This document shows, piece after piece, positions 38,022 through 41,007 of a DNA stretch of 64,000 nt. Below the pieces are notes generated by a model. That model was not told where the DNA came from, did not search any database, and saw only the letters and a program-made list of their open reading frames with translations. Both the position numbers and the translations under genes were made by a program. The first letter of the stretch is position 1. Each line of letters begins with the position of its first letter. Origin of the DNA: Sphingomicrobium aestuariivivum (lineage in GTDB: Bacteria; Pseudomonadota; Alphaproteobacteria; Sphingomonadales; Sphingomonadaceae); assembly GCF_024721585.1 (NCBI RefSeq), contig NZ_CP102629.1:2056501-2120500 (forward strand). Reading direction: 5' to 3'.

Positions 38022-39884
38022 ATGGTATCAGCGACCCACGAACTGACCCCCGCCGAGGCAGCCGAAGCGGACAAGGCGGAAGCCGTCGTCGTGCGCTTCG
38101 CCGGCGACAGCGGCGACGGGATGCAGCTCACTGGCGGGCAGTTCACGCTGTCGACCGCGTTGGCGGGCAACGACCTTGCCACCTTCCCCGATTTTCCCGC
38201 CGAAATCCGCGCCCCGCAGGGCACGACCTTCGGCGTTTCGGCCTTCCAGATCAACTTCGGTTCGGCGGCGATCGAGACGGCGGGCGATGCGCCCGACGTG
38301 CTGGTCGCGATGAACCCGGCGGCATTGAAGGTAAATGTCGCGGCCTTGAAGGAGGGCGGGCTGATCATCGCCGATACGGGCGAGTTTTCGGCGCGCAACC
38401 TTGCCAAGGCAGGTTACGAGGAAAACCCGCTCGAGAATGACAGCCTGGCCAAATACAAGGTGCTGGCCTTCGACATTTCGGCGCGCACGCTGGAGTCGGT
38501 GAAGGAGTTCGGCCTCTCGAACAAGGAAGCGCTGCGTTCCAAGAACATGTGGACGCTCGGCCTTGCGCTGTGGATGTTCGACCGCGACCGCCAGCCGGTG
38601 ATCGACTGGCTCAAGCAGAAGTTCGCCAAGAAGCCCGAGATCGCCGAGGCGAATATCGCCGCGCTCAACGCCGGCCACGTCTATGGCGAAACCGCCGAGA
38701 TCGGCGGGCAGGTGCGCCAGCATCATGTCGATCCGGCACCCGCCGAGCCGGGGCTCTATCGCACCGTAACGGGCGCCGAGAGCCTGTCGGTCGGTCTCGT
38801 CGCGGGCGCGCAGCTTGCCGGACTGTCGATGTTTTTCGGCTCCTATCCGATTACGCCGGCCTCGCCGATCCTGCACCACCTGTCGCGCCTGAAGCAGTTC
38901 GGGATCACGACCTTCCAGGCCGAAGACGAGATCGCGGCCATCTGTTCGGCCATCGGCGCGAGCTATGCGGGTAGCCTCGGGGTGACCTCCTCGTCGGGGC
39001 CCGGCATCGCATTGAAGGGCGAGGCGATCGGCCTTGCGGTCATTACCGAGCTGCCGCTGGTCATCGTCAATTCACAGCGCGGCGGTCCTTCGACCGGCCT
39101 GCCGACCAAGACCGAGCAGTCGGACCTCTATCAGGCGGTCTATGGCCGCAACGGCGATGCGCCGATCCCCGTGGTCGCCGCGCGCTCGCCCGCCGATGCC
39201 TATGAATGCGCCATCGAGGCGGTGCGGATCGCGGTGCAGTACATGACCCCCGTGATGCTACTGACCGACGGCTATATCGCCAATGCCGCCGAGCCGTGGA
39301 AGGTGCCGGACGCGAGCGAACACGAGTCGTTCGCGGTCTCCTTCGCCAAGGAAGGCGCGCAGCCCTACGAGCGCGACGAGAAGGGCGCGCGTCCGTGGAT
39401 CAAGCCGGGAACGCCGGGGCTCGAGCATCGCATCGGCGGGATCGAGAAGGCGCCGGTGACGGGGCACATCTCTTACGCGCCCGAGCACCATGCGCAGATG
39501 ACCGAAGAGCGTTTCGCCAAGGTGCGCAATGTCGCCGAGACGATCCCCGAGCAGGACGTCTGCCTCGGCGAGACGTCGGGCAAGCTGGCGATCGTCGGCT
39601 GGGGCTCGACCTTCGGGCCGATCCACCAAGCGGTGCGCAGGTCGCGCAAGAAGGGCATGGATGTGAGCCATATCCACATCCGCCACATCGCGCCCTTCCC
39701 GAAGAACCTCGGCGAGCTCCTCAAGGGCTATGACAAGATCATCGTGCCCGAGATGAATGCAGGGCAGTTGAAGACCATGCTGCGCGACCAGTTCCTCGTC
39801 GACGCGCGGCCGATGAACAAGATCGCGGGCCAACCTTTCATGATCGCCGAGATCGAGGCCGCGATTGCCGAGGCGCTGGCATGA
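38022..39884 (+). CDS. korA: 2-oxoacid:ferredoxin oxidoreductase, alpha(gamma-alpha fusion) subunit
   Basis: About 620 residues; a fusion of the gamma domain (about 22-210, VVVRFAGDSGDGMQLTGGQF) with the alpha domain (from about 250, MFFGSYPITPASPILHHLSR) and the late TPP-independent transketolase C-terminal part. It oxidises 2-oxoglutarate or a related 2-oxoacid to acyl-CoA with a low-potential electron acceptor. The ATG at 38022 is used; GTG six bases upstream also is in frame. It overlaps by four bases with a 33-aa gene that precedes korB. Confidence 0.93.
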   Translation: MVSATHELTPAEAAEADKAEAVVVRFAGDSGDGMQLTGGQFTLSTALAGNDLATFPDFPAEIRAPQGTTFGVSAFQINFGSAAIETAGDAPDVLVAMNPAALKVNVAALKEGGLIIADTGEFSARNLAKAGYEENPLENDSLAKYKVLAFDISARTLESVKEFGLSNKEALRSKNMWTLGLALWMFDRDRQPVIDWLKQKFAKKPEIAEANIAALNAGHVYGETAEIGGQVRQHHVDPAPAEPGLYRTVTGAESLSVGLVAGAQLAGLSMFFGSYPITPASPILHHLSRLKQFGITTFQAEDEIAAICSAIGASYAGSLGVTSSSGPGIALKGEAIGLAVITELPLVIVNSQRGGPSTGLPTKTEQSDLYQAVYGRNGDAPIPVVAARSPADAYECAIEAVRIAVQYMTPVMLLTDGYIANAAEPWKVPDASEHESFAVSFAKEGAQPYERDEKGARPWIKPGTPGLEHRIGGIEKAPVTGHISYAPEHHAQMTEERFAKVRNVAETIPEQDVCLGETSGKLAIVGWGSTFGPIHQAVRRSRKKGMDVSHIHIRHIAPFPKNLGELLKGYDKIIVPEMNAGQLKTMLRDQFLVDARPMNKIAGQPFMIAEIEAAIAEALA

Positions 39885-39982
39885 CACAGCCCGAGGACAT
39901 GAAGCCGATGAACGCCTGGCCGCTCATCATCATGCTTCTTGTGGTGGGTTATATCGTGGGCGCCGTGAACGGCTGGTGGTAA
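39881..39982 (+). CDS. 33-residue single-span membrane protein between korA and korB
   Basis: A 33-residue protein, MTQPEDMKPMNAWPLIIMLL followed by VVGYIVGAVNGWW, with one clear transmembrane segment (about 13-29) and an aromatic C-terminal end. The ATG overlaps the korA TGA (ATGA) and the gene ends with TAA 14 bases before korB, so it fits exactly into the operon. It is too short for many gene callers. No family is recognised. It could anchor the oxidoreductase or pair with a quinone/ferredoxin partner, but this is only inferred from position. Confidence 0.75.
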   Translation: MTQPEDMKPMNAWPLIIMLLVVGYIVGAVNGWW

Positions 39983-39996
39983 GAACGGAAATCAAG

Positions 39997-41007
39997 ATGA
40001 ACGAACAGACCAAACTCACCGCCAAGGACTGGGCGTCCGAACAGGAAGTGCGCTGGTGCCCGGGTTGTGGCGACTATGCGATCCTGAAAGCCGTGCAGCG
40101 CACGCTGCCCGAACTCGGCTCGGACCCCGCCAACACCGTCTTCGTCTCGGGCATCGGCTGCTCCAGCCGCTTTCCCTATTATATGGCGAGCTACGGCTTC
40201 CACACGATCCACGGGCGCGCCTGTGCGGTGGCAACGGGCGTGAAGCTCGCCAACCCCGAGCTCGATGTGTGGATCATCACGGGTGACGGCGATGCGCTGA
40301 GCATCGGCGGCAATCACACGATGCACCTGTTGCGTCGCAACCTCGATTGCCAGCTGCTCCTCTTCAACAACGAAATCTATGGCCTCACCAAGGGGCAATA
40401 TTCGCCGACCAGCCGGATCGGCACGCGCAGCCCCTCGACGCCTTTCGGCTCGGTCGACCGGCCCGCGCTGCCCGCCAGCTTCGCGCTCGGCGCCGGCGCG
40501 CGCTTCGTGGCGCGCGGCATCGACGTGAACAAGAAGCTGCCCGACGTCCTCAAGGCCGCGCACGCGCACAAGGGCGCCGCGTTTGTCGAGATCTACCAGA
40601 ATTGCATCGTCTATAACGATGACGTCTTCGCCCCCTTCACCGACCGCAAGGTCGCAGGTGAGAAGCAGCTGTGGCTCGAGAAGGGCGAGAAGATGCTGTT
40701 CGCGGGCGGCGAGAAGGGCATTGCCTTCGATGCCGACACCAAGACGCTCAAGGTGGTCGCGGGCGACAGCGAGGAGGTGCTGGTCCACGATCCGGCCAAT
40801 CGTGCGCTGGCGCTGCTGCTCGCCGAGATGCCCGCCGATATCTTCCCCGTCGCGCTCGGCGTGCTCTACGAGGACCCTGCGCCGACCTATGAAAGCGCGG
40901 TCGTCGAGCAGAACAAAGCAGTCGCCGAAGGGAAGACCGCGGACCTGCAGGCGCTGCTCAACCAGGGCCAGACGTGGCAGGTGACGAAGGAACCCCGCGT
41001 CGAATAG
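39997..41007 (+). CDS. korB: 2-oxoacid:ferredoxin oxidoreductase, beta subunit
   Basis: A 336-residue TPP- and [4Fe-4S]-binding subunit. Cys21 and Cys24 (WCPGCGDY), Cys55 (GIGCSSRF) and Cys203 (YQNCIVYND) are in the places of the four cluster ligands. The TPP pyrophosphate/Mg loop is GDGDALSIGGNH at 97-108 and continues with NNEIYGLTKGQYSPTS. The start MNEQTKLTAKDWASEQ is at 39997. It pairs with korA. No ferredoxin gene is nearby. Confidence 0.94.
   Translation: MNEQTKLTAKDWASEQEVRWCPGCGDYAILKAVQRTLPELGSDPANTVFVSGIGCSSRFPYYMASYGFHTIHGRACAVATGVKLANPELDVWIITGDGDALSIGGNHTMHLLRRNLDCQLLLFNNEIYGLTKGQYSPTSRIGTRSPSTPFGSVDRPALPASFALGAGARFVARGIDVNKKLPDVLKAAHAHKGAAFVEIYQNCIVYNDDVFAPFTDRKVAGEKQLWLEKGEKMLFAGGEKGIAFDADTKTLKVVAGDSEEVLVHDPANRALALLLAEMPADIFPVALGVLYEDPAPTYESAVVEQNKAVAEGKTADLQALLNQGQTWQVTKEPRVE

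What the first reader, a model, noticed from the sequence alone, without database searches (positions are those of the whole stretch)
39881..39982. A 33-residue membrane protein embedded between korA and korB
The gene fits exactly between the two subunits: its ATG overlaps the korA stop, and it ends 14 bases before korB. It encodes one clean transmembrane helix. Oxygen-respiring bacteria using a ferredoxin-type oxidoreductase need a membrane or electron-carrier partner, and no ferredoxin gene is nearby. A membrane anchor or coupling peptide for the enzyme would be new.
Basis: partly seen in the sequence, partly recalled or inferred. Interest (0 to 1): 0.7.

Follow-up and report, generated by a model that had tools for sequence, protein, structure and literature searches.

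The report
Tiny membrane protein inside korAB operon
A 33-residue protein with one hydrophobic helix is encoded between the two genes of a 2-oxoacid:ferredoxin oxidoreductase and is conserved there in almost every examined member of a bacterial genus, so it may be an undescribed accessory part of that enzyme.

Summary
In detail: the ORF at 39881-39982 (+) overlaps the korA stop as ATGA and ends 14 nt before korB. It is very probably a real gene. In its genus 65 of 66 korAB loci (64 of 65 genomes) carry a homologue in the same junction, with a hydrophobic segment and the signature K-[PQ]-I-N-x-[WF]-P-[LM]-x-x-M-L (K2 59/65, N5 59/65, P8 64/65, L13 63/65). It evolves under moderate purifying selection (pN/pS 0.50; null 0.84 +/- 0.05). 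Nine of 129 other Sphingomonadales loci have it, none of 67 junctions examined from other alphaproteobacterial orders. Profile searches gave no convincing copy away from korAB. Best explanation: an accessory single-helix subunit, like CydX or KdpF in kind, that tethers KorAB to the inner membrane and is translated in coupling with korB. Translation, tethering and interaction are inferred. An independent co-expressed membrane protein and a translational device remain open.

The parts
38022..39884 (+). korA: 2-oxoacid:acceptor oxidoreductase alpha (fused gamma-alpha) subunit, 620 aa
   Evidence: NCBIfam TIGR03710 641.5 bits, over its 482.75 cut-off; Pfam POR, POR_N, PFOR_II; nearest solved chain by sequence 6n2n_A, E 4.3e-74
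39870..39873 (+). GAGG, Shine-Dalgarno-like stretch 7 nt before the small ORF's ATG, inside the korA 3' end
   Evidence: sequence; GAGG or GGAGG also stands before the ATGA start in a number of relatives
39881..39982 (+). small ORF, 33 aa, one predicted transmembrane helix (about residues 12-30), N-terminal motif KPMNAWP; ATGA overlap with korA
39997..41007 (+). korB: 2-oxoacid:acceptor oxidoreductase beta subunit, 336 aa, with CPGCG motif
   Evidence: Pfam TPP_enzyme_C 97.5 bits, over its cut-off; NCBIfam TIGR02177 245.8 bits, below its 261.9 cut-off; sequence

Best explanation
The ORF encodes a small protein of one inner-membrane helix that is an accessory subunit of KorAB. Shown: its sequence is conserved, it is under purifying selection, it was found only at korA-korB junctions, and its stop usually lies within a few nucleotides of the korB start. 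Inferred: it is translated, in coupling with korA and korB; its helix inserts in the inner membrane; its conserved N-terminal segment (K-P-I-N-x-W/F-P) lies at the cytoplasmic face and contacts KorA or KorB, tethering an otherwise soluble enzyme near its electron acceptor (a ferredoxin reoxidised at the membrane, or a membrane oxidoreductase). It is an addition to KorAB, not a requirement, since most examined relatives lack it.
For: 65 of 66 korAB loci of the genus carry it. Profile search of 396 genomes of the order: 35 with E <= 0.01, 34 of them at the korA-korB junction; the profile was built from junction peptides, so those hits are partly by construction, but it would also have shown good copies elsewhere. 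Six genus genomes without a korB match have no hit below E 0.044, though four of them are under 85% complete. Conservation is specific, not only hydrophobic (P8 64/65, L13 63/65, K2 59/65, N5 59/65). pN/pS 0.496 against null mean 0.84, minimum 0.72 in 300 runs; changes by codon position 266/154/342. Stop within -8..+15 nt of korB in 62 of 65 genus loci; exact 4-nt overlap with korA in 31, with korB in 31, with both in 17. A passage on M. tuberculosis KOR says it is unclear how the enzyme feeds the redox pools and that membrane association is possible (PMC2773412, passages).
Against: No expression or interaction data. Selection is much weaker than on the first 100 codons of KorB (pooled dN/dS 0.38 against 0.07); 5 of 33 pairs exceed 0.8 and two are saturated. 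One genus member (G032) has korAB without it, while its close relatives L069 and L099, with the same kind of KorA C-terminal tail, have it. The weakest genus member (L069) scores only 16 bits, E 0.0023. 120 of 129 other Sphingomonadales loci lack it. The same junction also takes unrelated small genes, so position alone does not prove partnership. Charge does not settle topology.
Confidence: 0.5

Rival explanations
1. A small membrane protein with its own function (for example at another membrane complex) that merely shares the operon's expression, one of several small genes that have settled in this junction.
For: The junction in Sphingomonadales takes unrelated inserts: 12 loci with an ORF of 60 or more codons of TM-level hydrophobicity and 11 with other such ORFs. 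G032 keeps korAB without the peptide.
Against: No convincing copy away from korAB in 396 order genomes and 385 class genomes, whereas an independent gene would be expected to move sometimes; near-complete retention within the genus.
Confidence: 0.27
2. A translational device: translation of the ORF sets or couples korB translation, or brings the korB message to the membrane through its hydrophobic nascent chain; the finished peptide has little function of its own.
For: Tight spacing to korB (62 of 65 genus loci within -8..+15 nt), although 22-193 nt lie between korA and the ORF in 27 of the 65.
Against: A pure spacer would not need K2, N5, P8 and L13 conserved; korA and korB overlap by 4 nt directly in 46 of 120 Sphingomonadales loci that lack it.
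Confidence: 0.15
3. A regulator or toxin-like hydrophobic peptide carried by the operon.
For: Small hydrophobic peptides of such kinds exist (recalled).
Against: No match over cut-off in Pfam or NCBIfam for four representatives; retention with korAB across the genus.
Confidence: 0.05
4. A chance open frame without a product.
For: Many random frames of this length are open in such DNA (0.45-0.58 of random 81-mers).
Against: Conservation across the genus with purifying selection.
Confidence: 0.03

Closest known systems
CydX (cytochrome bd oxidase small subunit)
   Same: A small hydrophobic protein that is a component of a respiratory enzyme, with high sequence plasticity (PMC6005532, abstract). 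That it is encoded in the enzyme's operon is recalled.
   Different: CydX belongs to an integral membrane oxidase; KorAB is of a soluble type (recalled). The peptide had no match over cut-off in Pfam or NCBIfam.
KdpF (potassium ATPase small subunit)
   Same: Named as a small membrane protein and enzyme subunit in PMC10903887 (passages); single helix and operon position recalled.
   Different: Its partner is a membrane transporter; no match over cut-off in the libraries.
Two-subunit 2-oxoacid:ferredoxin oxidoreductases (6n2n/6n2o, Sulfolobus StOFOR 5b46/5b48, M. tuberculosis KorAB)
   Same: KorA and KorB belong to this enzyme class (M. tuberculosis KorAB from passages; StOFOR from the abstract start, its link to 5b46/5b48 recalled).
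   Different: I know of no membrane chain as part of those enzymes (recalled, not tested); the M. tuberculosis paper only suggests membrane association, from hydrophobic stretches in its alpha subunit.

Membership tests
2-oxoacid:acceptor oxidoreductase alpha subunit, TIGR03710 (KorA) | Score over the curated cut-off (482.75 bits) | tested here: met
   641.5 bits
2-oxoacid:acceptor oxidoreductase beta subunit, TIGR02177 (KorB) | Score over the curated cut-off (261.9 bits) | tested here: not met
   245.8 bits, E 5.9e-73; related to but below the subfamily model's cut-off
2-oxoglutarate specificity (Kor rather than another 2-oxoacid) | Demonstrated substrate | not testable with these tools
Known small TM subunits (CydX, KdpF and the like), as sequence families | Sequence match to a curated model | tested here: not met
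   No Pfam or NCBIfam match over cut-off for four representatives; weak ones only: DUF6341 E 0.11, GguB E 0.04, PmrR E 0.078
Small TM subunits, as a kind | Under 50 residues, one hydrophobic helix, encoded in the enzyme's gene pair and conserved with it | tested here: met
   conserved with korAB within the genus, patchy outside it
Small TM subunits, as a kind | Physical association with the enzyme | not testable with these tools
   No interaction data; complexes cannot be folded here

The most novel reading that the evidence does not exclude
In these bacteria the ferredoxin-type 2-oxoacid oxidoreductase is a membrane-tethered enzyme: a dedicated one-helix subunit places KorAB at the inner membrane so that its low-potential electrons enter respiration directly or through a locally reoxidised ferredoxin. 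In other genera, unrelated membrane proteins inserted at the same junction may have taken the same role.
Probability: 0.3. Interest if true: 0.75.

Novelty: new variant of a known kind. Interest (0 to 1): 0.52.

Why it matters
How organisms that respire oxygen yet carry an anaerobe-type 2-oxoacid:ferredoxin oxidoreductase dispose of its electrons is open at least for M. tuberculosis, where membrane association was suggested (PMC2773412, passages). A conserved one-helix protein fixed between the two subunit genes turns that guess into a small, testable experiment in environmental sphingomonads. It also points to a small-protein family that has no Pfam or NCBIfam model. Whether public records annotate it was not checked.

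Tried and rejected
Chance ORF: rejected by conservation, selection and hydrophobicity nulls. Known family: no match over cut-off in Pfam or NCBIfam. Moved copy in G032: no hit at E <= 1; in the six korB-less genus genomes: no hit below E 0.044. My first idea that the KorA tail of G032 had replaced the peptide: rejected, because close relatives with the peptide have the same kind of tail. Presence across the class: only the window's own genome among 385. Ferredoxin-like cysteine motifs in ORFs of the window, and one repeat motif: the script printed nothing. Published description: searches of the held open-access library showed no paper whose title or abstract start describes such a protein; of 314 and 35 papers only 15 and 20 were listed, and only passages of PMC2773412 and PMC10903887 and the abstract of PMC6005532 were read. 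Origin: six changes on a FastTree of KorA and KorB pieces; gain, loss and transfer were not told apart. Rows left out: 12 duplicate loci (each checked as equal in the korA end to a kept row), L152 and L218 (no korA match). The selection test used 33 greedy nearest pairs, 66 of 68 loci, with pairs nearer than 0.01 or farther than 0.22 in korB excluded by rule.

Full report
What is there. A GAGG stretch stands 7 nt upstream of its ATG, inside korA. KorA (38022-39884) is over the TIGR03710 cut-off; KorB scores a little under the TIGR02177 cut-off but carries the TPP domain. The nearest solved chain to KorA by sequence is 6n2n_A. The substrate is not established by these tests; 'kor' is kept as a name.

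Is it a gene? The window's genome is one contig of 2.35 Mb. In its genus 71 genomes were searched and 65 hold KorB at E <= 1e-60. All 66 of those loci (one genome has two) were fetched and the gap between korA and korB was read. A profile seeded with 39 clear members found the peptide in 65 of 66; the weakest, L069, scores 16 bits. The exception, G032, has only 3 nt between korA and korB and no profile hit in its genome; its KorA has a hydrophilic C-terminal tail, but the close relatives L069 and L099 have the same kind of tail and do have the peptide, so the tail is no replacement. By my choice of starts, the 68 members in that set (three from other genera) are 24-44 codons, most often 26 or 28. 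Their lowest 17-residue hydrophobic mean is 1.97; random open frames with flanking composition reach that in 0.03%, with the gaps' composition in 0.8%; other frames over the same DNA in 2 of 340.

Specificity and selection. Anchored on the core, the 65 genus members show K at position 2 in 59 (R in 5), P or Q at 3 in 64, N at 5 in 59, W or F at 7 in 51, P at 8 in 64, L at 13 in 63 and V at 16 in 53. The seeds were picked by a motif, but since 65 of the 66 loci are in the count this hardly selects. This is more than a generic hydrophobic helix. Over 33 greedy nearest pairs, pN is 0.236 and pS 0.476 (dN/dS 0.38); the ratio pN/pS of 0.496 lies below every one of 300 null runs (mean 0.84, sd 0.05, minimum 0.72). 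The first 100 codons of KorB give dN/dS 0.07, so the peptide is constrained but far looser than the enzyme. Five pairs exceed 0.8 and two are saturated. The window against its nearest relative gives 0.07.

Distribution. Outside the genus, 9 of 129 distinct Sphingomonadales loci carry it: three of group g33, three of g40, one of g64, and two named MAG contigs (L198, L200, recognised by reading the ORF); four of the nine (L273-L276) were fetched because the profile had hit them, one of these being also found independently as L205. A profile built from the genus alone scores eight representatives of these at 16.6-26.0 bits, each above the best of 183-200 shuffles of itself; two other single-helix junction ORFs (L241, L259) do not match. 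Of the 120 loci without it, 88 have gaps of 55 nt or less, 46 of them the 4-nt overlap of korA with korB. Order-wide, 35 of 396 genomes have a hit at E <= 0.01: 34 at the junction and one (G281, E 0.0099, partial, inside a 601-codon frame) that looks like chance and was not examined. Class-wide, only the window's genome among 385. In one search, 83 of 337 class genomes had KorB, three of them of this family; of the other 80, 67 junctions were read: 65 have gaps of 41 nt or less, two have 83 and 117 nt without a membrane ORF. The remaining 13 were not fetched. On a FastTree of 195 loci the trait needs six changes.

Arrangement. In the genus the peptide's stop lies within -8..+15 nt of korB in 62 of 65 loci; in the other three, 355-462 nt with a further ORF follow it. 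Its start lies within -8..+5 nt of korA's stop in 38, and 22-193 nt stand before it in 27. Seventeen loci have the 4-nt overlap on both sides. The link to korB is thus the tighter one, as expected of translational coupling.

Does the enzyme need it? The script found no ferredoxin-like cysteine motif of the patterns searched in the window, but the genome encodes a 112-residue ferredoxin about 0.7 Mb away. It is FdxA-like by its PF11953 (DUF3470) match and cysteine pattern; that this domain marks FdxA is recalled. PF11953 occurs in 70 of 71 genus genomes. A 2-oxoglutarate dehydrogenase E1 scores over the TIGR00239 cut-off in the window's genome and in all 61 of 71 genus genomes counted over it; weaker hits are fragments or probably other TPP enzymes. 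KorAB without the peptide is commoner among the other loci examined. So the peptide is accessory. The M. tuberculosis paper states that it is unclear how its KOR feeds the redox pools and that membrane association is possible (PMC2773412, passages).

Mechanism. I commit to an accessory one-helix subunit that tethers KorAB to the inner membrane (0.5). Net charge on the N-terminal side is +1 in 54 of 65, which fits N-in topology by the positive-inside rule (recalled), but the C-terminal side is +1 in 31 and 0 in 34, so topology is not settled. The strongest rival is an independent small membrane protein sharing the operon (0.27), since the junction takes other inserts too. A translational device is third (0.15).

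Novelty. No Pfam or NCBIfam model fits, and the literature searches named in Tried and rejected showed nothing on it. The kind, a small single-helix subunit of an enzyme complex, is known (CydX, KdpF); a dedicated one for a soluble-type ferredoxin oxidoreductase would be a new variant.

Noticed in passing
korA-korB junctions of L040, L096, L117, L134, L142, L145, L149, L226, L242, L251, L252, L260 and of L067, L091, L135, L136, L141, L147, L150, L203, L249, L258, L270: The junction takes small inserted ORFs: 12 loci with an ORF of 60 or more codons of TM-level hydrophobicity, 11 with other ORFs (that of L067 lies in a spacer and may be no gene), several with 4-nt overlaps. No background rate for other operons was measured.
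   Followed up: partly
L096 and L226; L091 and L150: Two homologous pairs of junction ORFs, each pair from loci not close in kin: a multi-TM protein (36% identity, E 6e-24) and a soluble protein (31%, E 2e-10); the L096 and L091 members have no Pfam match at E 0.1.
   Followed up: partly
spacer between korA and the peptide, e.g. L056, L080, L090, L101, L104: Repeat-like motif such as GCGAACATT or GTGACTTTAGTGACCTTAAG in a number of the 27 spacers longer than 15 nt (GAACATT in 7 of 27); nature unknown.
   Followed up: no
L095 (G032), L069 (G029), L099 (G017), korA 3' ends: These related genus members share a similar hydrophilic C-terminal tail of KorA; G032 alone of the genus loci lacks the peptide.
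   Followed up: partly
L241 and L259 korA-korB gaps: Two named records (Erythrobacter sp. EC-HK427, Aurantiacibacter marinus) have other, unrelated-looking single-helix ORFs in the same junction.
   Followed up: partly
L060, L101, L063, L065 junctions: GC-rich inverted-repeat-like stretches (ccccggcgaaggccgggg type) sit in the junction and look like small mobile or REP-like repeats.
   Followed up: no
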